A stretch of 64,000 bases of DNA from Arenicella chitinivorans (GTDB taxonomy: Bacteria; Pseudomonadota; Gammaproteobacteria; Arenicellales; Arenicellaceae): the NCBI RefSeq assembly GCF_014651515.1, contig NZ_BMXA01000002.1, forward strand, positions 310,001 through 374,000. The letters are read 5' to 3'. How positions within the stretch are numbered: position 1 is the first letter of the stretch; the number at the start of each line of letters is the position of its first letter. Shown one piece after another: positions 18,602-30,961 of the stretch. The notes beneath the pieces are model-generated. The model ran no database searches. It had not been told where the DNA came from and saw only the letters and a list, made by a program, of their open reading frames with translations. Position numbers and translations under genes: made by a program.

Positions 18602-19825
18602 ATGCGAAACGTTTATTTTGCACTAGGCTTAGTGCTGCTCGCTGCGTTGTTAGCCATCTACTTCAAGCCGAAGGAGAACACGGATGCATTGCCGTCGGTG
18701 CTCTCTGTCGGTGAAGAGGACTCGATAGTCGAGGAGCCAACGGTGGTTGAGCCGCAAGTGCCACCCATATCCAAATTTGAATCTGCGGATTCATCAGTCG
18801 CCAATATGCTGCTAAACGGTGATTTTGGCCGCTCTCTAAATTCCTGGAAGGTTGAAGAGCACGTTACCTGGTCACCGACGCTCGGTTCCGACTCGAGCGG
18901 TGCCTTGGTGATTAATGCCCCGGAGCTTAGTTCGGATTCAAGAATTATCTACGCGAAAACGGCGTCTCAATGTGTGGCGTTGCATAACGGTGTGGAGTTT
19001 GACCTAGATGCTCGTTTTCAGTACCCGGAATTCACGGCTGAAAACGCGCACGCAAACCGCATCAATGTTATTTGGTTCGAGACACCAGATTGTTCGCGTG
19101 GTGGGCAGTTCGGATCTTATGCGGAACCGAAGCTCGCGCGCGGAGAATGGCAGCACGTGTCACGGCAAGGCCTAGTTCCGGCGCTCGGTGCAGTGGCGGC
19201 GAGGATTGAGATTCGTCAGACTCAGCGTGGTAATAATAACGCCAAGGCGATCTGGGACGACGTGGTTTTTACCATGACGAAGTCGAAGGTCACACTGCTC
19301 GAGGATGACATTGAGTCTGCGCAATTCACGCGTCCGGAGGGCGAGAATTATGTGCAAAACAGTGGTTTTGATTCGACGATAAGTCAGTGGTGGCCGTCGC
19401 CGTCAAAGCGACTCCGATGGCATGATTCCGGCGAGCCAGCGCGCGGCGGTGTCATGTCGGCTAGCTTGCCGAACGAGCGTGATTCAAGTATGGGCACGGG
19501 TGCGTTCAATCAGTGTATTAATATTGGTTCTCACACTCGATTCGAGCTCGGTGCCATGGTGAAAGTTTCCCCGACGTCGACGCAGCGAGGTGGTGGCCGA
19601 CTTCGCCCCACATGGTATCAAGGGTTGAACTGCACTGGGCGTCATTCAACATCGGGTAAGCATGCCGACGTGGATAAAGATGAACCCGGATGGCAAACAC
19701 TCGTGGTGCGAGATCTGACGCCGAAGTTTCAAGCCACGAGCGTGCGAATTTCAGTGATCCATTCGATTGACGGGCGTGGAGAGCATACTTTGTGGTGGGA
19801 TGATTTTTATTTTAGCGCGTATTAA
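18602..19825 (+). CDS. Membrane-anchored protein with two CBM-like beta-sandwich domains
   Basis: A 407-residue protein. An N-terminal anchor (VYFALGLVLLAALLAIYF, about 4-21) and a Pro/Glu-rich linker lead to two related domains. Domain 1 (about 68-222) begins NMLLNGDFGRSLNSWKV and contains QCVALHNGVEFDL; domain 2 (about 250-405) begins NYVQNSGFDSTISQWW and contains QCINIGSHTRFEL. Both end in an (I/L)WWDD-type strand. The pattern resembles CBM4/9-type jelly rolls, which bind polysaccharide, but no catalytic domain is attached. It probably faces the periplasm. The function is inferred from the fold only. Confidence 0.65.
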   Translation: MRNVYFALGLVLLAALLAIYFKPKENTDALPSVLSVGEEDSIVEEPTVVEPQVPPISKFESADSSVANMLLNGDFGRSLNSWKVEEHVTWSPTLGSDSSGALVINAPELSSDSRIIYAKTASQCVALHNGVEFDLDARFQYPEFTAENAHANRINVIWFETPDCSRGGQFGSYAEPKLARGEWQHVSRQGLVPALGAVAARIEIRQTQRGNNNAKAIWDDVVFTMTKSKVTLLEDDIESAQFTRPEGENYVQNSGFDSTISQWWPSPSKRLRWHDSGEPARGGVMSASLPNERDSSMGTGAFNQCINIGSHTRFELGAMVKVSPTSTQRGGGRLRPTWYQGLNCTGRHSTSGKHADVDKDEPGWQTLVVRDLTPKFQATSVRISVIHSIDGRGEHTLWWDDFYFSAY

Positions 19826-20345: not shown

Positions 20346-21047
20346 TCATGGGGCGACATGATTAATGCTGAGTACGCCGCGTCCTTGTGTGGAGACTCGC
20401 TTAATAAAGGATGATTGCACGAGTAGTCCGGCCGAACCGGTCCCGCCTTGGATGCTGTTTACCCGCAATTCACCAGCCGAGAGATTTGCGTTCAGTTTGA
20501 ATAAGATGGCGCTTTGCGCGATGACGCCATAGTACTGACTTGCTTCGGCGTAGTTAAGTGCCTGCACGCTACCTGCGGCTTGCGGTGCCGCATTCCAACG
20601 ATTACCGACTGCGCTCTGTGCCAAATTCTCAATCGACTGATCCGCTTTGGCGTAATTCGCAGCCTGCGTATTACTACCACCAAGGTCAGCATCTTGCGTC
20701 ATGGTGACGGATGAAAACCCCGTGGTTGCTTGCAAGGCGTTCTGTATCGACCGGCCCTCCATTAGATTTACCGCTTGGACACTGCTGTTACCATCGACGC
20801 CGGATTGCGTCATGGTGATTGATGAGAATCCGAATAGGGTGTTTTGCAACGAGTTCACCACGTCGTCATTCGCTAGATCTACTGAGATACCGTTAATAGC
20901 CTGCTTGGCATTGGCACTATTGACCTGCGTCATAGTTGGCGCGTTGCGCAGTGCGGTACTCTGAGTGATATTCCACTCCGCACTGTGCGCCGGTGCGACC
21001 AGCAGAAGGCTGACGAACAGTAGCTTGATTTGCGTATTGTGTATCAT
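20346..21047 (-). CDS. Short Q/N-rich repeat protein, probable minor fibre subunit
   Basis: A 233-residue exported protein (signal to about 22, ending PAHSA). The mature N-terminus AEWNITQS...APTMTQ...QAINGI matches the start of the larger repeat protein encoded at 22751-24169 (ADWNVTQT...APSMTQ...QALNGI), so the two are paralogues. About four repeats follow with the pattern hydrophobic-x-MTQ ... (N/S)xQAxNxxxA, e.g. SSVTMTQDADLGGSNTQAAN. The spacing of Gln and Asn recalls curlin and HfaD-type beta-solenoid repeats. The short/long pair resembles the nucleator/major-subunit division of curli CsgB/CsgA (inference). ATG 21047 has AGGTGG 5 bp ahead. It follows the CsgG-like gene by 18 bp. Confidence 0.72.
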   Translation of the reverse strand: MIHNTQIKLLFVSLLLVAPAHSAEWNITQSTALRNAPTMTQVNSANAKQAINGISVDLANDDVVNSLQNTLFGFSSITMTQSGVDGNSSVQAVNLMEGRSIQNALQATTGFSSVTMTQDADLGGSNTQAANYAKADQSIENLAQSAVGNRWNAAPQAAGSVQALNYAEASQYYGVIAQSAILFKLNANLSAGELRVNSIQGGTGSAGLLVQSSFIKRVSTQGRGVLSINHVAP

Positions 21048-21065
21048 GATGACCACCTCACCGTG

Positions 21066-22199
21066 CTATTCGCAGTTTGCGCGGTTGTCATCGTCGCACA
21101 CTCGCCAGTCACGTGCGACAGCTTTGTGCACGTAATCTTCGAGTTCTAAGGGTTGCTTCTCATCGTCTTCGAATTTAAGTTCCGCCTCGATTTCAGCGTA
21201 GCTTACTTCTGGCTGCTCCTGAGTATCAGCACGGTCAGCCAGGCGGTCTGCTGCACGTTGACGTGAATCACGACCAACGGCGACCGTGTCCGGATTATCA
21301 AAGCAAGGTGAGAAGTCCACTTTATTGCCAAACGCATTATCCAGGATCCAAACCGCGGCACCATCGAGCAGTGTTTGTTGTGCGGCATGTAATGTTTCGA
21401 CACGGACATCGGTGTTTGAAAAGCCGTAGTAATAGTTGTCCACAGCAACGCGGAAACGTGCGGTTTTGCTGTTGCTGTAGTACTTCAGGTCGAATGCTTC
21501 GGTACCGATCACTACATTAGTTTGCGGGTCAATGATATTGACCACCAGCGTGACCGAACGTTCTGAACCAGAGTCACCAAAATCGATAGCAGCACTTTTC
21601 TCTTCCTCGACGTCGCCGCGATAGCCACCGTTTTGGCCGTAACCTTTAGACCGTTGGTGTGAGCTGTCGTTGCGCGTAAATGCACCGTCGATGATCAAAG
21701 GCGTGACTTCGCTGACGTCGTTCATGCCGCGAGCGTTACGATTGGTGTTTGCGACCGAGGTTATGCGTGGCAGAAAACTTGATAAGTTTGATTGCGACGG
21801 AAAACCGAAGCGATCCAGCCCAACTTGCTCGCTGATGATCGGTTGAAACATCAGTGGAAACTGGTCGATTACAATGCCGTAGCTTGGGTGCGTGTGGGCA
21901 CTCAAGGTTGAAATCATTTGAATTCGGCCCGAATCCGACAGTGGACCATCAGAGTAGTTGTTGTGCTTAATGGTGCCGTCGATGATGTCCCGCACCATAA
22001 ATACGTACGCACTGGGGTTCACCAGGTTGTTGTCGAGCTCTTGGCGCAAGCATTGTAGCGCTTCGGACATTTTGGTTTTGGATTTCTCGGGTGCGGCATC
22101 AAAATCAGTATCCAATGTGTATCGTGATACCGTCGAGCAGCCGGACATGACTAGTGCTGCTGCGCCTGAGATAACTAAATTTTTAATCTGCGTTTTCAT
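21066..22199 (-). CDS. CsgG/HfaB-family outer-membrane secretion lipoprotein
   Basis: A 377-residue protein. The signal ends in the lipobox VMSGC. The body follows CsgG: AYVFMVRDIIDGTIKHN (about 65-81), TPLIIDGAFTRND (about 166), then the beta-hairpin region SVTLVVNIIDPQTNVVIGTE (about 215) and C-terminal VETLHAAQQTLLDGAAVWIL. CsgG forms the nonameric pore that exports curli subunits; HfaB is its relative in holdfast anchoring. A C-terminal acidic/Arg-rich tail of about 80 residues with a Cys pair (CDDDNRANC) is extra. It is third of four genes, with 17 and 18 bp gaps on either side, so it is probably the exporter of the flanking repeat proteins. Confidence 0.82.
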   Translation of the reverse strand: MKTQIKNLVISGAAALVMSGCSTVSRYTLDTDFDAAPEKSKTKMSEALQCLRQELDNNLVNPSAYVFMVRDIIDGTIKHNNYSDGPLSDSGRIQMISTLSAHTHPSYGIVIDQFPLMFQPIISEQVGLDRFGFPSQSNLSSFLPRITSVANTNRNARGMNDVSEVTPLIIDGAFTRNDSSHQRSKGYGQNGGYRGDVEEEKSAAIDFGDSGSERSVTLVVNIIDPQTNVVIGTEAFDLKYYSNSKTARFRVAVDNYYYGFSNTDVRVETLHAAQQTLLDGAAVWILDNAFGNKVDFSPCFDNPDTVAVGRDSRQRAADRLADRADTQEQPEVSYAEIEAELKFEDDEKQPLELEDYVHKAVARDWRVCDDDNRANCE

Positions 22200-22216
22200 G
22201 GGTGTTCTCGTAAAAA

Positions 22217-22648
22217 TTAATAGCAGTCGTAGAAGTCAACTTGTTCGATATACACGTTGCTGACCACCGTCGCTGTAGGGTTGACTTGGAGCGGATCGCC
22301 TGAAGACTCAATGTATTGAGCGACAATCGCGCAGTTCGGTTTTTCAATGTTGTCGACGTAGAAGACTTCGCCATCGGGTCCGATTACCTGGTAGCCGCGC
22401 GTATTGCCGACAATCAGGTTGTTGGTAGTCAGATAGTTCAGACTCTCACCAGCTTCTGCCAGAAGTTTGGTGTTGTTGACTTCACTGTAGGCAAAACTGG
22501 GTTGTTGCAGTGAGGGGATCGTTGCCCAACCTGGATGAAACTCCTGTAACTCCTGTACATTAATTTCATTGACCGTTTGTGCCATGGCAGTTGTGATGGT
22601 CGCACCGAAGATCAGCGCGACAGCAAGTTTTTGTGCGTTCATGTTCAT
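22217..22648 (-). CDS. Small exported protein of the fibre locus
   Basis: A 143-residue protein with a signal peptide (to about 23, ending TAMAQ). The mature part contains GWATIPSLQQPSFAYSEVNN, TTNNLIVGNTRGYQVIGPDG and two Cys (NCAIV and the penultimate DCY). It has no repeats. By position, between the large repeat protein and the CsgG-like pore, it could play the part of CsgE/CsgF or HfaA. I see no firm similarity to any of them, so the role is inferred from context only. It ends 17 bp before the CsgG-like gene. Confidence 0.62.
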   Translation of the reverse strand: MNMNAQKLAVALIFGATITTAMAQTVNEINVQELQEFHPGWATIPSLQQPSFAYSEVNNTKLLAEAGESLNYLTTNNLIVGNTRGYQVIGPDGEVFYVDNIEKPNCAIVAQYIESSGDPLQVNPTATVVSNVYIEQVDFYDCY

Positions 22649-22689
22649 GCCAATTTGCCTAAGTTAAAAGTGAATGATTAAGGTTAAAG

Positions 22690-22736
22690 TAGCCTGGTTG
22701 GCCAAACGCCGTTGTGGAGCTTGACCAACCAGCCTA
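22690..22736 (-). promoter_or_regulatory. Intercistronic hairpin between repeat protein and downstream genes
   Basis: TAGCCTGGTTGG (22690-22701) pairs with CCAACCAGCCTA (22725-22736), 11 of 12 positions. It sits 15 bp past the stop of the major repeat gene and upstream of the next start. Such stem-loops commonly protect or partly terminate the message so that an abundant subunit is made in excess of secretion proteins. Confidence 0.55.
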
Positions 22737-22750
22737 TCTGCGACGCGGTG

Positions 22751-24169
22751 TTAGAATTTCACGCCAACAAAGTTGCCATACTGGCCAGAACCCGTAATGT
22801 TGTCTTGAACCATACTGAAGGTCGCTGCCGTCACATTCAGCACTTGGCTGACTGTGCCGCCGCTTCCTGAGCCAGCGTTATCGACAATCGCGTTTAAGGC
22901 CTGCAAATTACCAGACGCCGCACTCAGACCGTTTTGGGCCATCGACAAAGCACCGCCGCCAACAGTAAACGACTGCGTTGTGCCAGAATCGTCAATGTTG
23001 CCGTTAGTGATATCGATCAAGTTACCCGCTTGGATCAACGTGCTACTGGCGCTTTCCTGATTGAAGTCAGTCACCAGGTTTGAACCGATGAAGGATTGCG
23101 AGATTTCATCGATGCTGTCTGTCGTGCCCGTTGCTAGAACGGCCATGTTGCCAGCTTGAACATTGGAGGACGCGGTCGGTGTTTGATCGAAATCAACTGC
23201 CTGTGCGCCGGAGGCTATAAAGGATTGCGTCAGATCTGCAATGTCGCCATCCGAACTTGCCAGGTTTCCTGCCTGAATGTTGTTGGATGCACTGGCGGTT
23301 TGCTCGAAGATAGCGTCGCCTGACGCGATGGTGGTGGTTTGAATTGTGGAGCCAGCTGATACGCCGATGTCGCCGCCGACTTCGGTTTTCATGAAGTTAG
23401 TGGCTTGAACATTGTTCGTGCCCGACACAGCTTGCGTTACGATCAGGTCATTGGTTGTAGCTGTGAAAGACTGTACTGTCTCATCCAGCTCGCCCGTGGT
23501 AGCCACCGCGCCGTTGCCGACCTGGGTATTACTACCGCCACTGTTACCCGCACCTTGTGTCATGCGTGCTTCACCATCGACATCGATAGACTGAGTGAGT
23601 CCGACCGTGGCCACATTGACGCCTTTCGCATAGTTAACACCTTGCACGTTTCCGCTGGTTGTCATGACTGACTGCGTCATCTCCAATTCGCCACTCTCGT
23701 TGTAGTCCTGCACCAATCGGTCAATGTCAACTGTGGCATTTGCTAAGTTCGCCGCTTGTACGTTCGCACCTGCTGATGAGGTGTCTGACTGTGTCAACGA
23801 CGTCGTGCTGACGTCTGTTTGATTGACGACTTGCGAGATGACGCTGGTTGAACCGATGTTTTGACCATCGATAAAGTTGATGGCTTGGTTTGATGCATCA
23901 ACAAATGCGCCCTGATTTAAATTAACACCAACCGACGAGGCGAGATTCGCGGTTTGTGAACCTGACGCAAGATCATCTTCAGTGTTGTCGAGGGCGATAC
24001 CGTTGAGTGCCTGATTACTGCTGGCAACGTTAGTGACTGCACCCTGTGTCATGCTTGGCGCAGGCACGGTTACATCCGCTGTCTGGGTTACATTCCAGTC
24101 AGCGGCATGTGCGCCTGACGCCAGTAGGGAAGCGCCGACGAATGCTGCAATTTTGGTCATTTTTTTCAT
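22751..24169 (-). CDS. Large Q/N-rich repeat protein, probable major fibre subunit
   Basis: A 472-residue exported protein. ATG 24169 (MKKMTKIAAF) is chosen because GAGG lies 9 bp ahead and it begins a clean signal peptide ending ASGAHAA. After the N-terminal block shared with its paralogue, about ten degenerate repeats of about 35-40 residues follow, each with TQSF/TQS ... a hydrophobic-x-x-Q strand, then SxNxQAxNxA, e.g. DIADLTQSFIASGAQAVDFD and SSNVQAGNMA. Charged residues other than Asp/Glu are rare. This resembles the stacked beta-strands of curlin/HfaD-type amyloids; formation of a surface fibre is inference. It is the first gene of the operon, with a structured leader and a shared palindrome upstream. 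Confidence 0.75.
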   Translation of the reverse strand: MKKMTKIAAFVGASLLASGAHAADWNVTQTADVTVPAPSMTQGAVTNVASSNQALNGIALDNTEDDLASGSQTANLASSVGVNLNQGAFVDASNQAINFIDGQNIGSTSVISQVVNQTDVSTTSLTQSDTSSAGANVQAANLANATVDIDRLVQDYNESGELEMTQSVMTTSGNVQGVNYAKGVNVATVGLTQSIDVDGEARMTQGAGNSGGSNTQVGNGAVATTGELDETVQSFTATTNDLIVTQAVSGTNNVQATNFMKTEVGGDIGVSAGSTIQTTTIASGDAIFEQTASASNNIQAGNLASSDGDIADLTQSFIASGAQAVDFDQTPTASSNVQAGNMAVLATGTTDSIDEISQSFIGSNLVTDFNQESASSTLIQAGNLIDITNGNIDDSGTTQSFTVGGGALSMAQNGLSAASGNLQALNAIVDNAGSGSGGTVSQVLNVTAATFSMVQDNITGSGQYGNFVGVKF

Positions 24170-24311: not shown

Positions 24312-24315
24312 ATGC

Positions 24316-24385
24316 GGTTCTCGCTAGGCCGTGTAACGCAAATGACTGCGGGTTTGCGTCCGAATCTACACGCCCTGCGAGAACC
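24316..24385 (-). promoter_or_regulatory. 70-nt nested hairpin, candidate structured 5' leader
   Basis: Three nested complementary blocks line up on one axis: GGTTCTCGC (24316-24324) with GCGAGAACC (24377-24385), GTGTA (24331-24335) with TACAC (24367-24371), and ACGCAAA (24336-24342) with TTTGCGT (24353-24359). Together they give 21 base pairs around a 10-nt loop, interrupted by one internal loop. It would be transcribed as part of the leader of the fibre operon. Confidence 0.6.
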
Positions 24386-24450
24386 GACGAGGCAAGAATA
24401 GGCGTTTAAATTGGATTGAAAAATAGTCCAAAAAACCTATCCCGGTTGGC

Positions 24451-24669: not shown

Positions 24670-24779
24670 CCGCACGGTTTAGGCTGAGTCGCTAGGGTTA
24701 TGGCGCAAAATGGCCTATGATCGATTCACCAGCAGTGCTGGGCAGGTGTCAAACTAGGGTTATAAAACGGGAAATTATC

Positions 24780-26282
24780 ATGCCCCTTTCTTCTTATGTA
24801 TGCATTTCAGACCTCCATCTGGGTGCACGTTATAGTATTTTGTCGAGTCGAGATGCGTTACATCGTTTTGATGTGGACCAGGCATCGGATTGTTTGCTTG
24901 AGTTGGTGGATGCACTGCGGAATTACATTCCAAAGGTATTTGGCGACGAGCTACCGCAATTGGTGTTGCTGGGCGACTTGGTGGATTTTGATTTTGCGTC
25001 GATGACGGATATCGTGCGGTCGATGAATGTGTTGGTCGAAGCATTGTTCGATCCGGATAAACCGGCTTTGTTTAGTAAAAACATCATTCTGGTGCCAGGG
25101 AATCACGATCACCACTTTTGGCAGACCGAGAAAGATGCTTTGTTTCTGGAGCGGTTTAATGGGCATGCAAGGCGGCCCGCAGAGCGAATTCCGTATCAAA
25201 CGACGGACTTGTTTCGTCAGGCTTCGCTGAGTTCCACGTTGTTAAACCAATTACCCCATGCCAAAAAGCTGAATCTGAATTTTGAATTAAGGTACCCGAA
25301 TTGGGGTTTGTGGCAGGCTGGTCAGAGCGGCGAGCGCGACAAGCAAGTCATCTTTCATCATGGGCATTATGTAGAGCCTCTGTATCGGATGGTTACGACC
25401 GTTAATCAGATCATGAGCGACATCGCGGATCCGGATATCGAGGAATTGGAACGTCAGAATGGCGGCTGGATTAATTTTTTCTGGTCCAGTCTTGGCGCGT
25501 CACCAGCGCAACGCGATAACACCGTCATGTTGTTTGACATCATGCAAAATCCCGCGGCGACCTACCGCTACTCGCAGCGACTCGCTGCTCTGGTCAGTGA
25601 CTATTTAAGCCGCCAGTCCGGCACCTCACCAAGCAACACCTTGATTAACAATCTGTCGCTGGAAAAAGTGCTAACCGGGATTTTTAGTGCGACCTTGGGG
25701 CGTGGATTTCAAGCCGAACGCGCCAGCAACCACCGAACCTTGTCAGAGGACGGTTGGGATGGTCTGGACTGGTACTTGTCTAAACCCTTGCACCAGCAAA
25801 TCCTGGCGGATGCGCCATCATCAGGATCGGGGCATCAAACCGATCCTGGCATAGTGGAAACTGAGACAACATTTGTTTTTGGCCATACGCATAAGCCATT
25901 CCAGGACATCGTCGGTGTGGCAGGCTATCAGCAGCCGGTTAAGGTGTTTAATTCGGGTGGCTGGGTGGTCGATCAACCGGATTTCAGTGCTGCGCAAGGT
26001 GGCGCCGTCGTATTGGTCGATGCGGAGCTTAACGTTGCCTCGCTGCGACTTTTTCAAGCCCCGGTGAATGGTCAAATGCCGACAGTAGCGGCAACCGGTT
26101 CGCATCCTGGTGAGCGGGCCGATAACCCGCTGTTAAAGCGGATGCAGGACAATATAGATCAGAGCCATTGGCAGGCATTTCAGGACAGCGCCTGCCAAGC
26201 TATGCAACAGCGTGCGATGGAAGTGCGAGATCAATTCTTTGATCGCAACTCAAGTGATGGAGTGAAGCAACATGGGCACTAA
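24780..26282 (+). CDS. Calcineurin-like metallophosphoesterase
   Basis: A 500-residue protein with the full metallophosphoesterase motif set: ISDLHLGAR (about residue 9), LLGDLVDFD (about 62), VPGNHDHHF (about 104), FHHGHYVEP (about 191) and FGHTHKPF (about 367). It would be a two-metal phosphodiesterase or phosphatase. The substrate is unknown, and the length exceeds the roughly 250-residue core through insertions in the middle. ATG 24780 is preferred to 24717 because the first motif normally lies within a few residues of the start. Its 3' end overlaps the GMC-fusion gene by 11 bp, so the two are translationally coupled and likely act together. Confidence 0.85.
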   Translation: MPLSSYVCISDLHLGARYSILSSRDALHRFDVDQASDCLLELVDALRNYIPKVFGDELPQLVLLGDLVDFDFASMTDIVRSMNVLVEALFDPDKPALFSKNIILVPGNHDHHFWQTEKDALFLERFNGHARRPAERIPYQTTDLFRQASLSSTLLNQLPHAKKLNLNFELRYPNWGLWQAGQSGERDKQVIFHHGHYVEPLYRMVTTVNQIMSDIADPDIEELERQNGGWINFFWSSLGASPAQRDNTVMLFDIMQNPAATYRYSQRLAALVSDYLSRQSGTSPSNTLINNLSLEKVLTGIFSATLGRGFQAERASNHRTLSEDGWDGLDWYLSKPLHQQILADAPSSGSGHQTDPGIVETETTFVFGHTHKPFQDIVGVAGYQQPVKVFNSGGWVVDQPDFSAAQGGAVVLVDAELNVASLRLFQAPVNGQMPTVAATGSHPGERADNPLLKRMQDNIDQSHWQAFQDSACQAMQQRAMEVRDQFFDRNSSDGVKQHGH

Positions 26283-29200
26283 TACACAGAATAAGGATGC
26301 CGCTGCGCTCAATTTGCAGCACCATATTGCGACTGATTACAGCAAAATCGAAAAGCGCAAATCCTGCAAGATCCTGGTTATCGGCTCTGGGTATGGTGGC
26401 AGTATCGTGGCATCGCGATTGGCCCGTGCCGGGCAGCGAGTCTGCCTGCTGGAGCGTGGGCAGGAATTACGTCCCGGTGAATATCCAACGGATTTGGCTG
26501 GTGTGCAGGAACAAACGCAGGTGCGCACCGATAACCCGGATCATCCGGTTATTGGTAAGCACTCGGCGTTGTTTGATTTGCGTATCAACGAAGACATGAG
26601 CGCACTGATTGGCTGTGGTCTCGGCGGCACCTCGCTAATCAACGCCAACGTGGCACTAAAGCTCGACGAAGCAGTGTTTGAACGCGACGGGTTAGCCTGG
26701 CCGCAGGTGTTTCGTGATCAACCTGGGCTGTTGGAACCATATTACAAACTGGCTCGAGAGGCGTTGGGTTCTAACCCGTACCCAATGGCGGATGATCCGC
26801 GCGCGCCCGGTTACAAACCGTTGAATAAACTCAAGGCGCTCGAAAAGTCGGCGTTGACACTCGGCGTTGAAGTACAGCGGCCGGATATTAATGTCACGTT
26901 TGATGGCGCGCGTCCAAATCATTTCGGGTTCCAGCAAAAGCCGTGTAATCTGTGTGGCGATTGCTGCTCTGGCTGCAATGAAGGTGCAAAAAACACCACT
27001 CTAATGAACTATTTACCTGACGCGAAAGCACACGGTGCAGAGCTCTACTGCAATACCACGGTACACCACATTGAGCAGCACTCGAAGGGCTGGTCAGTAC
27101 ACGTACGTGCCACGGAGCGGCCGGAAAAGAAAGACCGTTCGTATGGCAATAAGGTTATTACTGCGGATATTGTGGTGCTGGCTTGCGGTAGTCTGGGGTC
27201 GACCGAGATCATGTTGCGATCCAAGGCGGCAGGTCTGACCTGTTCCGAGCGGCTTGGCAAGCAATTCTCTGGCAATGGCGACTTGCTGGCTTTTGGTTAC
27301 AATAGCTACTGGCTGGACAACGACAAGTTCACCAATCGCTTATTGCGTGAAGACAGCAAGGCGCAGTTTGAGAGCATTTACGGAGTTGGCAAGGGCAGTA
27401 ATCAAATCAGTGATGAGCAACTGCCCGGGCCGTGTATTACCGGTGTGATTGATCTGCGCGACAACAGCCGAACGGACGAACACCAACTCATTGTTGAGGA
27501 AGGGGTCATTCCCGGTGCGCTCGCCACGGTGATGTCGGCTACCATGGTATTTGGTGCCGCTGGCAACGCCAATTTTCTGCGCTATGGTGTTGATCAGGCA
27601 GAAACTCGATTGCGTGACATTGAAGCAATTGCGACGACCATGCAGCATAATCCGGCGGGCTTAACTGATTGCGCCTATGTGGGGGCCATCAGCCGCACTC
27701 AAACCTACTTAGTGATGAGCATGGATGCCTCAGAGGGCGAATTGCAACTGGATCGGGATCGACTCAAAATTCATTGGCCCGGTGCTGGTAAAAGTAGTGC
27801 CATCAACGGTCACCATGACACCTTGGCTCGGATCAACGACGCCGTGCAAGGGCAACTAATTACCAATCCTTTGCTAAATGATGCCTTTGGTAATAAGCTG
27901 ATTACCGTGCATCCGCTGGGCGGTTGTGGCATGGGTGATACGATTGCGGAAGGCGTGGTGAATGACCGAGGTCAGGTGTTTAGCGGTTTAACCGACGATT
28001 CGGTACATGCTGGGTTGTACGTCTGTGATGGGTCGATTATTCCAGGTGCGGTTGGTGTGAACCCATTGTTGACGATTTCTGCGTTAGCAGAACGTTGCAG
28101 CGAATTGATGGCGAAAGATTATGGCTGGACGATCGACTACCTGAGTCGTGTACCCGCATCGATCGTCGAGCAGAATGAAGACGACGATGGTGACGACGAC
28201 GATGACTTGATGGAATTGAGCTTTGCTGACGAAATCGAAAGTGAGTTGTTGGGCGACGACTTTGATGATTCGGACCCGGCAACGTCGCAGGCCGAAAAAG
28301 CATTGTTGCAAGGACTGGGCAGTGCGGCGACCTCGTTTATTGACCTTAAGTCCGACATACTCAAGTCCAGTTGTCAGTTCTCCGAGGAAATGCGTGGTTT
28401 CGCGCACTCAATCAACAACGGTCTGCCCAATCCAACACTACGCCGTCATGATTATGAACGAGCTTTTGCCAGCGGCCGCGCGGCCAAGCGTGCGCTGAAA
28501 TTGAATCTGACCGTGCATATACCAGACGTGGTACTGCTCACGGCAGAGCGCCAGACGGCATGCAATATCACTGGTGGGACACTCCAGTATGGCGATGATC
28601 GTTACGATATTCGAAAAGGCACATTCCGCTTGTTGCCGCCGGATGGCCATGCCTCCGAGCGTTGGCTGATGGTCTACGAACTCGAGTGCGGCCAAAAGCG
28701 TCGCGATGGTTTCACGCTGGTCGGTCGCAAATACCTGCATGGTAAACCCGGTTCGCATTGGTGGACCGATTTGACGACCTTGTATGTGGACTTATTCCGT
28801 GCAGATACTGGTCAAGAGACGCGATTTGCAAGTGGTATCGTGTCGTTGACGTTACAGGATTTTGTACGTCAATTGAGTACCTTTGAAACCGACTTGCCGG
28901 CAAAAGCTCTGCGTAAAGCCTTGGGCGATATGTTGTACCTTGCGATCGGTGCCGCTGGCAAAGTGGACGCAATGAAGACTGGGGTTGGCTTGTACCAAGT
29001 TGCCAAACTCGGCGCATCACTGGCAGAAACCGTGTTCCGCGCGTATGGTGGGCTACTCGCGACGTTGAATAATTTTCCCAAGCAGGACGCCACTCGGTTG
29101 CCAGGCCGCTCAATGCCTAGCGGGCGTGAGTACGCCGAGATCGAAAGTCAGGCGGGCTTTACGATTAAGCTGACACGATATCGCGCCACGCACAAGTCCG

Positions 29201-30204
29201 ACAGCGCCTGTTATCCGGTGATTCTGGCCCCTGGTATGGGGGTCACGGCATCGTCCTTCGCCACCACCACCGTGGCGTGTAATTTGGTGGAATTTTTGAC
29301 TGCCAAAGGGCACGAAGTCTGGTTGCTAGATTACCGAGCCAGTGCGGATTCAGGATCGTCAACCAAGTCGTTCAGTGTGGATGAAATTGCTCAGTACGAC
29401 TGGCCAACCGCGATTGATTTTGTGTTACGTAAATCGCCCCTTGATCAGGTGCACATTGTGGCACACTGCGTTGGTTCAATGAGCCTGCTAATGGCTTTGC
29501 TGAAGCGGTTTGTTGATAAACAGACTATACGCTCGCTGGTGTCTTCGCAACTGACCTTGCATCCGGTTTCCAACTGGTTGAATAATGCCAAAGCAGATCT
29601 TGACGTTATCAACCAATTGGAGAGCATTCCGCTGATGAAACAAATGGGGAATGTGGTGACCATGCGGGCTGGCAAAACTGGGTTTGATCGTATGTTCGAC
29701 GTGATGGCGTATCAGGTGCCGACACCTGAAGGTGAAGAGTGTACTAACCCGACTTGTCATCGCGTTTTGTCGGTGTATGGGCCGTCGTATTTGCACGCAC
29801 AACTTAATCGTGCAACGCATATCAAATTGGCTGATTGGTTTGGCCCGATTCACTTGGATGCATTTCGCCAGATCACACACATCATTCGCGCAGGTCACGT
29901 GGTTGATTCCGAGGGAAAAAATACTTACTTGCAGGACATTCCGGCGGTCACGTCCAAGTCAGAAAACACCATCGAGCAGCTCGATCTTCCGATCATGTTT
30001 CTGGCCGGCGCATTGAATCTTGAGTTCTTACCACAAACCTCAGCGCGCACCTATCATTGGTTGTGTGCGCATAATCCGCTGAGTGTGGACAAGTATCACC
30101 GACATGTTTTTACTGATTACGGTCATATGGACTGCTTTATTGGTAAAAACGCTAGTCGGGATATCTTCCCTGAGCTGTATACTTGGATCGAGAAGTATCA
30201 ATAA
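26272..30204 (+). CDS. Giant GMC oxidoreductase - alpha/beta hydrolase fusion
   Basis: A 1310-residue protein. Residues about 33-600 are a GMC/cholesterol-oxidase-like flavoprotein: FAD motif VIGSGYGGSIVASRLARAG, a GCGLGGTSLINAN segment, a Cys cluster CNLCGDCCSGCNEGAK (about 224) and the C-terminal DGSIIPGAVGVNPLLTISAL (about 584). An Asp/Glu linker (about 630-670) and an unassigned middle domain follow. Residues about 975-1310 are an alpha/beta hydrolase with PGMGVTASSF, LLDYRAS and the elbow VAHCVGSMS, whose nucleophile position is Cys1066 rather than Ser, and TDYGHMDCF with the likely His. Oxidation of a sterol or alcohol followed by ester/lactone cleavage is plausible. It is coupled to the phosphoesterase and followed by the LuxR gene. 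Confidence 0.88.
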   Translation: MGTNTQNKDAAALNLQHHIATDYSKIEKRKSCKILVIGSGYGGSIVASRLARAGQRVCLLERGQELRPGEYPTDLAGVQEQTQVRTDNPDHPVIGKHSALFDLRINEDMSALIGCGLGGTSLINANVALKLDEAVFERDGLAWPQVFRDQPGLLEPYYKLAREALGSNPYPMADDPRAPGYKPLNKLKALEKSALTLGVEVQRPDINVTFDGARPNHFGFQQKPCNLCGDCCSGCNEGAKNTTLMNYLPDAKAHGAELYCNTTVHHIEQHSKGWSVHVRATERPEKKDRSYGNKVITADIVVLACGSLGSTEIMLRSKAAGLTCSERLGKQFSGNGDLLAFGYNSYWLDNDKFTNRLLREDSKAQFESIYGVGKGSNQISDEQLPGPCITGVIDLRDNSRTDEHQLIVEEGVIPGALATVMSATMVFGAAGNANFLRYGVDQAETRLRDIEAIATTMQHNPAGLTDCAYVGAISRTQTYLVMSMDASEGELQLDRDRLKIHWPGAGKSSAINGHHDTLARINDAVQGQLITNPLLNDAFGNKLITVHPLGGCGMGDTIAEGVVNDRGQVFSGLTDDSVHAGLYVCDGSIIPGAVGVNPLLTISALAERCSELMAKDYGWTIDYLSRVPASIVEQNEDDDGDDDDDLMELSFADEIESELLGDDFDDSDPATSQAEKALLQGLGSAATSFIDLKSDILKSSCQFSEEMRGFAHSINNGLPNPTLRRHDYERAFASGRAAKRALKLNLTVHIPDVVLLTAERQTACNITGGTLQYGDDRYDIRKGTFRLLPPDGHASERWLMVYELECGQKRRDGFTLVGRKYLHGKPGSHWWTDLTTLYVDLFRADTGQETRFASGIVSLTLQDFVRQLSTFETDLPAKALRKALGDMLYLAIGAAGKVDAMKTGVGLYQVAKLGASLAETVFRAYGGLLATLNNFPKQDATRLPGRSMPSGREYAEIESQAGFTIKLTRYRATHKSDSACYPVILAPGMGVTASSFATTTVACNLVEFLTAKGHEVWLLDYRASADSGSSTKSFSVDEIAQYDWPTAIDFVLRKSPLDQVHIVAHCVGSMSLLMALLKRFVDKQTIRSLVSSQLTLHPVSNWLNNAKADLDVINQLESIPLMKQMGNVVTMRAGKTGFDRMFDVMAYQVPTPEGEECTNPTCHRVLSVYGPSYLHAQLNRATHIKLADWFGPIHLDAFRQITHIIRAGHVVDSEGKNTYLQDIPAVTSKSENTIEQLDLPIMFLAGALNLEFLPQTSARTYHWLCAHNPLSVDKYHRHVFTDYGHMDCFIGKNASRDIFPELYTWIEKYQ

Positions 30205-30253: not shown

Positions 30254-30961
30254 ATGTCCGGATTAGCGATTTTATTAGTAGATGACCACGCCTTATTTCG
30301 CAGTGGTTTGTGCTACTTGCTGAATGGGCTTGATCAGGCGCTGGACATTTCTGAAGCAGAGACGTTTGAGCAGGCGATGCGCGTCTGTCAGCCGAGCACA
30401 GAGTTGGTGCTGCTCGATTATCATCTGCCCGACAGTGCCGGATCGTTTAGTGCGTTACAGCAATTGAAGCAGGCATTTCCTTCGATCACTGTGGTGTTGC
30501 TGTCGAGTGAGGACAATCCACATATTATCCGTGGTGCGATCGACGCGGGTGCCGCTGGCTTTATACCGAAGTCGTCGACGCCTAATATTATGATTGCGGC
30601 GCTAAAGCTTATTTTGGCTGGTGGCACATATTTGCCACCCATTGCGTACGCCGACTCCGATGTGGAGTCCCGATTCGCTGCGCGCGCAGCCAAACCCGCC
30701 ATGACTGAGGCCACCAATCCGTTTATGGAAATGGAGGGGGATTTGCCCTTGAATCATTCGCAAGTGGCGCAGTTATCTAAACGACAATTTGAAGTCTTGA
30801 CCGGTGCTATTAAGGGCAAGTCCAACAAAGTGATCGCGCGCGAACTTGATATTGCCGAAGGTACCGTCAAGGCGCATTTGTCGATGGCCTATAAAATTAT
30901 CGACGTCAAGAATCGCACCGAGGCGGTCTACATGGCTGCCAAGCTTAAGTTTGGTCTTTAG
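30254..30961 (+). CDS. LuxR/NarL-family response regulator
   Basis: A 235-residue protein. The receiver domain has the acidic pair in LLVDDHALF (about residue 7), phospho-acceptor Asp55 in LLDYHLP, a Ser in VVLLSSED and Lys in FIPKSS. The C-terminal LuxR HTH has LSKRQFEVLTGAIKGKSNKV and GTVKAHLSMAYKII. It is a transcription factor activated by phosphorylation. It starts 49 bp after the GMC-fusion gene on the same strand and is convergent with a hybrid histidine kinase (7 bp between stops), its probable partner. The 17-bp palindromes in front of the kinase, phosphoesterase and fibre genes are its best candidate targets (inference). Confidence 0.9.
   Translation: MSGLAILLVDDHALFRSGLCYLLNGLDQALDISEAETFEQAMRVCQPSTELVLLDYHLPDSAGSFSALQQLKQAFPSITVVLLSSEDNPHIIRGAIDAGAAGFIPKSSTPNIMIAALKLILAGGTYLPPIAYADSDVESRFAARAAKPAMTEATNPFMEMEGDLPLNHSQVAQLSKRQFEVLTGAIKGKSNKVIARELDIAEGTVKAHLSMAYKIIDVKNRTEAVYMAAKLKFGL

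What the first reader, a model, noticed from the sequence alone, without database searches (positions are those of the whole stretch)
20346..24169. CsgG-type secretion locus with two paralogous Q/N-rich repeat proteins: candidate new surface fibre system
Four exported products are encoded in one direction: a 472-residue repeat protein, a small Cys-containing protein, a CsgG/HfaB-like lipoprotein, and a 233-residue repeat protein. The two repeat proteins share their mature N-terminus ((A)xWNxTQ...APxMTQ...QAxNGI) and a repeat with regularly spaced Gln and Asn, but do not follow the strict curlin consensus. No CsgD, CsgE or CsgF is recognisable. CsgG and HfaB are known to export curli and holdfast anchor proteins; that this locus makes an amyloid-like fibre or anchor is inference.
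Basis: partly seen in the sequence, partly recalled or inferred. Interest (0 to 1): 0.82.

Follow-up and report, generated by a model that had tools for sequence, protein, structure and literature searches.

The report
Divergent CsgG/HfaB-type surface-protein export locus
Four neighbouring bacterial genes appear to make a very divergent outer-membrane export pore and two related glutamine/asparagine-rich repeat proteins that it probably delivers to the cell surface, a rare cousin of the curli and holdfast-anchor systems.

Summary
Four exported products are encoded on the minus strand: rep1 (472 aa), a 143-aa protein with two Cys, a 377-aa lipoprotein and rep2 (233-236 aa). The order is conserved in three genomes of one genus; lipoprotein and rep2 also sit together in a fourth genome of the order. 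The repeat proteins are true paralogs with a ~41-residue unit that is not the curlin repeat.

Weaker evidence still suggests a very divergent CsgG/HfaB relative: an end-to-end profile alignment to HfaB above all 100 shuffles (not so without the signal peptide), an HfaB-type two-cysteine signature, and CsgG leading the structural comparison, though from a poor model (pLDDT 36). No homology to curlin, HfaD, HfaA, CsgE or CsgF was detected.

Best reading: an HfaB-like pore exporting two new repeat proteins as surface fibre or anchor. Pore and export are inferred; amyloid or beta-solenoid is unproven. A hairpin behind rep1, kept in three genomes, suggests rep1 is the abundant subunit.

The parts
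22751..24169 (-). rep1: exported 472-aa Q/N-rich repeat protein, about ten units of ~41 aa; probable major surface subunit
   Evidence: orthologs in L008 and L006
22690..22736 (-). stem-loop between rep1 and the small gene, folding in three genomes; 6 of 19 predicted pairs kept through changes on both sides, 6 of 19 broken in one sequence; possible RNA stabiliser or expression divider
22217..22648 (-). 143-aa exported protein with two conserved C-terminal Cys; sits where hfaA sits before hfaB but no detectable relation to HfaA, CsgE or CsgF
21066..22199 (-). 377-aa lipoprotein, very divergent CsgG/HfaB-like, candidate outer-membrane export pore; C-terminal tail variable (a SPOR domain in L009)
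20346..21056 (-). rep2: exported 233-236-aa paralog of rep1, candidate minor subunit, nucleator or anchor
24314..24388 (-). large hairpin in the leader upstream of rep1; near-identical sequence in L008, not seen in L006

Best explanation
The locus encodes a dedicated surface-export system of the HfaB/CsgG kind. The lipoprotein is exported, lipidated and placed in the outer membrane, where it oligomerises into a pore. rep1 and rep2 leave through Sec, are recognised in the periplasm by their shared mature N-terminus (AxWNxTQ...APxMTQ), pass the pore unfolded, and fold outside through their ~41-residue Q/N-ladder repeats into a beta-rich fibre or anchor. rep1 is the abundant subunit and rep2 the minor, cell-proximal one. 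The 143-aa protein is an accessory, perhaps a chaperone or pore cap. Shown: the genes, their conservation, the rep1/rep2 paralogy, the repeat, and a hairpin after rep1 kept in three genomes. Supported but not proven: the lipoprotein's kinship to HfaB/CsgG. Inferred: pore, substrate recognition, surface location, fibre, subunit ranks and the role of the small protein.
For: Kinship. (1) The lipoprotein core aligned to 18 proteins found with the HfaB model (11 above its cut-off, 7 below) scores 45.1 over residues 3-302; 100 column shuffles that keep the signal peptide average 30.1, best 35.2. With the first 10 of them it is 35.4 against a best of 28.7 in 20 shuffles. (2) Without the signal peptide it beats all 100 shuffles against the 23-row CsgG set (26.7 against best 22.8). 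(3) An HfaB box (T-x-[YML]-[STD]-x-x-[LR]-x-C, or the shorter T-x-[YM]-[ST]-x-C) is in 4 of 4 lipoproteins, 17 of 18 HfaB-type and 1 of 23 of the CsgG set, that one (L037) being the HfaB-type protein of G485 seen again in L089; 50 of 20,000 shuffles of the window protein have it. A late Cys is also shared (17 of 18 trimmed HfaB-type rows; in the 18th it was trimmed off and is seen), and one search aligns both Cys unprompted. (4) In VIA-align, CsgG takes the six best rows, Z 5.1-6.2 over model residues 35-315; 12 of Foldseek rows 2-21 are CsgG. System. (5) The four-gene order is conserved in 3 genomes. (6) A C-terminal SPOR domain in L009 (E 1.9e-12) fits a periplasmic C-terminus. (7) rep1/rep2 paralogy. 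(8) Hairpin behind rep1 with compensatory changes.
Against: No CsgG or HfaB model matches it. Without the signal peptide the HfaB comparison is not above shuffles (21.8 against best 24.0), and the first CsgG comparison was barely so (38.7 against best 36.0 in 20). Curli CsgG and HfaB resemble each other far more (124.8) than either resembles this protein. Foldseek's first row is not CsgG and none is below E 0.001. VIA-align rows within 1 of each other are tied, so only the first CsgG row (6.2) stands clear of the best other protein (4.9), and Z under 8 may be a common arrangement. The segment aligned with CsgG's first membrane hairpin is acidic (VEEEKSAAIDF), not an obvious membrane strand. 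Neighbours show no homology to HfaA, HfaD, CsgE or CsgF. The rep1 model is unconfident. The Cys box was chosen after seeing the HfaB sequences.
Confidence: 0.55

Rival explanations
1. A gammaproteobacterial counterpart of the HfaABD holdfast anchor: the repeat proteins form no long fibres but sit on the surface at the pore and tether an exopolysaccharide.
For: The HfaB-type cysteine signature rather than that of curli CsgG; the order small protein - lipoprotein - repeat protein mirrors hfaA-hfaB-hfaD as seen in L073, L074, L075, L078; repeat proteins accompany HfaB-type genes in the further loci read by eye.
Against: No detectable homology of the small protein to HfaA or of rep1/rep2 to HfaD; in L085, L086 and L089 the order beside the HfaB-type gene is different; polysaccharide genes were not searched for; an extra, larger repeat protein comes first.
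Confidence: 0.2
2. The lipoprotein is not a pore but a structural lipoprotein of the envelope; the repeat proteins are exported in another way or stay in the periplasm.
For: No CsgG/HfaB model match; an acidic stretch where CsgG has its first membrane hairpin; other lipoproteins (LptE, PelC) follow CsgG in the structure list at Z up to about 4.
Against: Whole-length HfaB alignment above shuffles, shared Cys box, CsgG rows at the top of the structure list.
Confidence: 0.2
3. A true but strongly diverged curli system.
For: Paralogous larger and smaller repeat proteins plus a CsgG-like lipoprotein; strands of the form hydrophobic-x-hydrophobic-x-Gln occur 10 times in rep1 (500 shuffles: mean 3.2, best 9).
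Against: No Pfam hit, no Q-x-G-x-x-N, full curlin kernel not above shuffles (3; best 5), unit of ~41 rather than about 23 aa, no CsgE or CsgF among the four, HfaB-type rather than CsgG-type Cys pattern.
Confidence: 0.05

Closest known systems
HfaABD holdfast anchor of Caulobacter and relatives (HfaB = putative CsgG-like translocon; PMC6707917: outline with abstract, introduction and discussion read)
   Same: lipoprotein with the two HfaB-type cysteines; a small exported protein directly before it and a repeat protein directly after it
   Different: no HfaB model match; small and repeat proteins not detectably homologous to HfaA/HfaD; a larger paralogous repeat protein first in the cluster
Curli (csgBAC/csgDEFG; PMC3521004 and PMC10192328, passages seen)
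   Same: paralogous larger and smaller repeat proteins beside a CsgG-like lipoprotein; Gln/Asn ladder; some strands end in hydrophobic-x-hydrophobic-x-Gln
   Different: unit ~41 aa with N-x-Q-A-x-N, not the ~23-aa curlin unit; no CsgE/CsgF among the four; lipoprotein outside the CsgG family model
Lone CsgG-domain protein of the same genome (G000:C2:293218-293781, L004)
   Same: same genome; clear CsgG match (E 4.0e-47)
   Different: unlinked, 235 aa, no lipobox by eye, no repeat protein among the ORFs listed beside it

Membership tests
CsgG family (PF03783) | match to the family model over its cut-off | tested here: not met
   no hit at E<=10; in the own genome PF03783 finds only the unlinked protein
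CsgG family (PF03783) | CsgG fold | tested here: inconclusive
   model pLDDT 36.0; CsgG in the six best VIA-align rows, Z 5.1-6.2, next 4.9; Foldseek E about 0.03
CsgG family (PF03783) | oligomeric outer-membrane pore | not testable with these tools
   needs purification and electron microscopy
HfaB (NF037935) | match to the family model | tested here: not met
   no hit at E<=10; none in the own genome at E<=0.001
HfaB (NF037935) | N-terminal TxYSxALxC-like box and late Cys (signature derived here after inspection, from 18 sequences) | tested here: met
   4 of 4 lipoproteins
HfaABD system | HfaA and HfaD homologs beside it | tested here: not met
   profile comparisons within shuffle range; no NCBIfam hit of such a name, though I did not check that HfaA and HfaD models are in that library
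HfaABD system | linked function with a holdfast polysaccharide | not tested
   hfs genes were not searched for
Curli / curlin | curlin repeat | tested here: not met
   no Pfam hit; 0 Q-x-G-x-x-N against 5 in each of E. coli CsgA and CsgB
Curli / curlin | CsgE and CsgF in the locus | tested here: not met
   no Pfam hit for the four proteins; small protein against CsgE and CsgF profiles within shuffle range; not searched genome-wide
Beta-solenoid / amyloid subunit | confident beta-solenoid or amyloid fibre | tested here: inconclusive
   rep1 model pLDDT 36.6, strands in the second two thirds; six Foldseek rows at E 5-10; fibre formation not testable here

The most novel reading that the evidence does not exclude
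A new, rare branch of CsgG/HfaB-type secretion with its own substrates: two paralogous proteins built from a three-strand, ~41-residue Q/N-ladder unit that fold into a new kind of extracellular beta-solenoid or amyloid-like fibre, helped by a new small accessory protein, with subunit dosage set by a conserved hairpin after the major gene.
Probability: 0.3. Interest if true: 0.7.

Novelty: new variant of a known kind. Interest (0 to 1): 0.5.

Why it matters
CsgG-type pores are among the simplest known protein exporters and are used in nanopore sequencing (recalled). A member this far from CsgG and HfaB, with substrates that are not curlins, would show which parts of the pore and of the export signal are essential, and would give a new repeat for surface-fibre studies.

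Tried and rejected
Family libraries. Pfam gave no hit at E<=10 for the four window proteins. NCBIfam gave none for three; rep2 had two far below cut-off (a sugar transporter, E 0.0083, 15.1 of 401 bits; a cytochrome c-550, E 0.086). Orthologs had sub-cut-off Pfam hits (L003 rep2: microcin V, E 0.26; L006 rep1: DUF2749, E 0.067). PHROGs gave only weak hits of unknown function (small protein E 0.017 and 0.1, lipoprotein 0.4). None was pursued.

Other searches. PDB sequence searches gave nothing relevant for the lipoprotein (none; ferredoxin-NADP reductase, E 0.25), rep1 or the small protein (best E 1.5); rep2 was not searched there. The lipoprotein had no match in plasmids or viral contigs, rep1 none in phages.

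Discarded weak genome hits. G366 (E 0.002) lies in frame in an ORF that by eye is a membrane-fusion (adaptor) protein; my note wrongly calls it out of frame. G449 (E 0.008) lies in an ORF that by eye is a glycerol kinase. Nine further A3 hits (E 0.004-0.05) and three further A6 hits (E 0.005) are short partial matches, some with stops; I did not open them.

Comparisons that failed. rep1 and rep2 against HfaD, small against HfaA: within shuffles. Small against CsgE: within shuffles; against CsgF 17.8 with the best of 40 shuffles 20.8. Six Foldseek rows for rep1 (SufB/SufD, LpxD, pectin methylesterase) are to my knowledge all beta-helical, but E 5-10 is no evidence. Rfam gave one sub-threshold match inside the small gene (ASdes, 21 of 40 bits). 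A leader comparison used a sequence cut too short and is not used. In the HfaB alignment the script trimmed some rows badly (L074 lost its C-terminal part; L086 and L089 kept extra N-terminal residues).

Literature. HfaB + holdfast anchor + Gammaproteobacteria: 0 papers. At least three of curli-like, novel amyloid, CsgG, metagenome-assembled: 0 papers. No listed title described such a locus (12 listed; 15 of 29 listed) or (20 of 560 listed, mostly unrelated hFABP papers). Only open-licence PMC papers were searched.
Full report
What is there. On the minus strand of the window lie rep1 (22751-24169, 472 aa), a small exported protein (22217-22648, 143 aa), a lipoprotein (21066-22199, 377 aa) and rep2 (20346-21056, 233-236 aa). 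By eye all begin with signal peptides, the lipoprotein with MSGC|S. Gaps are 102, 17 and 9 bases, so the last three genes are probably one transcript with rep1 in front.

Conservation and spread. The four-gene cluster is present in the same order in G007 (L002; the same contig, by length and identity, as the named record JAUHZM010000052.1, L008) and in G017 (L003, L006). In L009 (JAHRAW010000113.1, same length as the G417 contig) the lipoprotein and rep2 lie at a contig edge, so upstream genes cannot be judged. The lipoprotein occurs in 3 of 21 genomes of the family and 4 of 109 of the order. In an even sample of the class 3 of 369 genomes had a hit; one, G366, I discarded as an unrelated adaptor protein, leaving 2, both of the own genus. 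A capped scan of genome contigs found only L008 and L009. No match was found in the plasmid collection or viral contigs. The locus is thus rare in what was searched. The phosphoesterase gene on the rep1 side (24717-26282) is found in the same three genomes and as a fragment in G003, of 21 searched; the fragment appears to end with its contig, judged from the locus length, and G003 also has the next gene. The genes on the other side differ. This suggests shared gain or loss of a block.

The repeat proteins. rep1 and rep2 are paralogs: profile score 120 against a best of 18.9 in 30 shuffles, over 163 columns. In a pairwise alignment identity is 21 of 50 in the N-terminal segment of rep2, then 13 of 50, 18 of 46 and 9 of 34. 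rep1 can be cut by hand into ten units, the nine spacings being 38-44 residues: N-[VIT]-Q-[AGV]-x-N, then ...Q-S-F, then hydrophobic-x-hydrophobic-x-Q. Two further Q-[AGV]-x-N matches (mature positions 91 and 420) fall off this register and were left out. The motif [NS]-x-Q-[AGV]-x-N occurs 9 times against at most 3 in 500 shuffles. The curlin signature Q-x-G-x-x-N is absent (0, against 5 in each of CsgA and CsgB), and curlin units average 23 residues (PMC10192328, passage). The full curlin kernel is not enriched beyond shuffles (3; mean 1.2, best 5). AlphaFold of rep1 with a two-row alignment gave pLDDT 36.6, with no structure in the first 134 residues or so, one helix, and strands from there on. 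That neither confirms nor refutes a solenoid.

The lipoprotein. No Pfam or NCBIfam model matches it. The Pfam CsgG model finds in this genome only another, unlinked protein. The HfaB model finds nothing in this genome although it rings in Caulobacter. A distant relation was then tested in three ways. First, profile comparison. Against 23 CsgG-set proteins a local match covers residues 168-250 with score 38.7, but shuffles that keep the signal peptide reach 36.0. Against 18 proteins found with the HfaB model (11 above its cut-off, 7 below) the alignment runs from residue 3 to 302 with score 45.1, all 100 shuffles being at or below 35.2. Without the signal peptide the HfaB score falls to 21.8 (shuffles up to 24.0), while the CsgG-set score is 26.7 (shuffles up to 22.8). 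As a yardstick, curli CsgG against HfaB scores 124.8. Second, cysteines. HfaB-type proteins carry a Cys in a box like TPYSxALxC and another near the end of the domain. All four lipoproteins have both (TKMSEALQC or TKLTDALRC, and DFS[PA]C). The box is in 17 of 18 HfaB-type proteins and, of the 23-row CsgG set, only in L037, which is itself an HfaB-type protein. The motif was chosen after inspection, so its rate of 50 in 20,000 shuffles is only a guide. Third, fold. The AlphaFold model is poor (pLDDT 36.0, pTM 0.40). Foldseek against the PDB lists an H. pylori adhesin first (E 0.01); 12 of the next 20 rows are CsgG (E 0.03-0.12), and none is below 0.001. VIA-align places CsgG in ranks 1-6 (Z 5.1-6.2); rank 7 is another lipoprotein at 4.9, rank 8 FlgT at 4.6, and rank 9 again CsgG at 4.3. 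Rows within 1 are tied, so only the first stands clear, and the tool warns that Z under 8 may reflect a common arrangement. Together these make a CsgG/HfaB-like protomer likely, about 0.75 in my judgement, but not established. The C-terminal tail after about residue 315 is variable, and L009 carries a SPOR domain there (E 1.9e-12), which fits a periplasmic C-terminus and contact with peptidoglycan.

The small protein. It is the most conserved of the four with the nearest relative (96%), with two C-terminal cysteines invariant in three sequences. It shows no detectable relation to HfaA, CsgE or CsgF, and beyond the genus only short weak hits in a sample of the class.

RNA. The gap between rep1 and the small gene folds into a hairpin in all three genomes (z -3.1, -2.5 and -3.1; 0, 2 and 1 of 200 shuffles fold as well). 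In the three-row alignment 6 of 19 predicted pairs are kept through changes on both sides, mostly in the one diverged row (L006), and 6 of 19 are broken in one sequence. It has no U tract. By analogy with fimbrial operons (recalled) it may stabilise the rep1 message and make rep1 the abundant subunit. A larger hairpin (24314-24388; 121-nt fold at -51.6 kcal/mol, z -4.4) sits in the rep1 leader; its sequence is near-identical in L008 and not seen in L006. Rfam has no match at either place.

How it most likely works. Sec exports all four. The lipoprotein forms an outer-membrane pore like HfaB or CsgG. The shared mature N-terminus of rep1 and rep2 is the targeting signal, as the N-terminal segment of E. 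coli CsgA is for CsgG (PMC10192328, passage). The repeats fold outside. Whether the product is a fibre or a short anchor cannot be decided; surface placement of HfaA and HfaD depends on HfaB (PMC6707917, introduction and discussion), so both readings have precedent. The pore, export and surface steps are inference.

Place among known systems. It works like the HfaABD and curli systems but is not a member of either by the defining tests that could be run (see Membership tests). The lipoprotein lies nearer HfaB in its cysteines. Dueholm and colleagues noted that CsgG belongs to a larger family with many paralogs outside curli loci (PMC3521004, passage), so a further branch is not in itself unexpected. 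I file it as a new variant of a known kind.

Noticed in passing
window 22690-22736, minus strand; L008 7440-7560; L006 7670-7790: Intercistronic hairpin behind rep1, folding in three genomes, with compensatory changes in 6 of 19 pairs.
   Followed up: partly
window 24314-24388, minus strand: Large hairpin in the leader of rep1, near-identical in L008 and not seen in L006; no Rfam match.
   Followed up: partly
L009 68-1405: Ortholog of the lipoprotein with a C-terminal SPOR domain in place of the variable tail.
   Followed up: partly
window 24717-30204: Metallophosphoesterase gene and a 1310-aa protein with GMC oxidoreductase and alpha/beta hydrolase parts; the phosphoesterase is found in the same three genomes as the locus plus a fragment in G003.
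   Followed up: partly
window 30254-30961: Response regulator with a LuxR-type output domain about 6 kb from the locus; a regulatory link was not tested.
   Followed up: no
G000:C2:293218-293781 (L004), outside the window: The only match of the Pfam CsgG model in the genome, a 235-aa protein without a lipobox by eye and without repeat proteins among the listed neighbours.
   Followed up: partly
window 18602-19825: 407-aa protein with two halves that look alike by eye (NMLLNGDFG... and NYVQNSGFD...), no Pfam or NCBIfam match.
   Followed up: no
L083 470-3544, L084 76-3165: Repeat-rich proteins of over 1000 aa beside HfaB-type genes in two genomes of one genus, possible extended HfaD-like anchors.
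   Followed up: no
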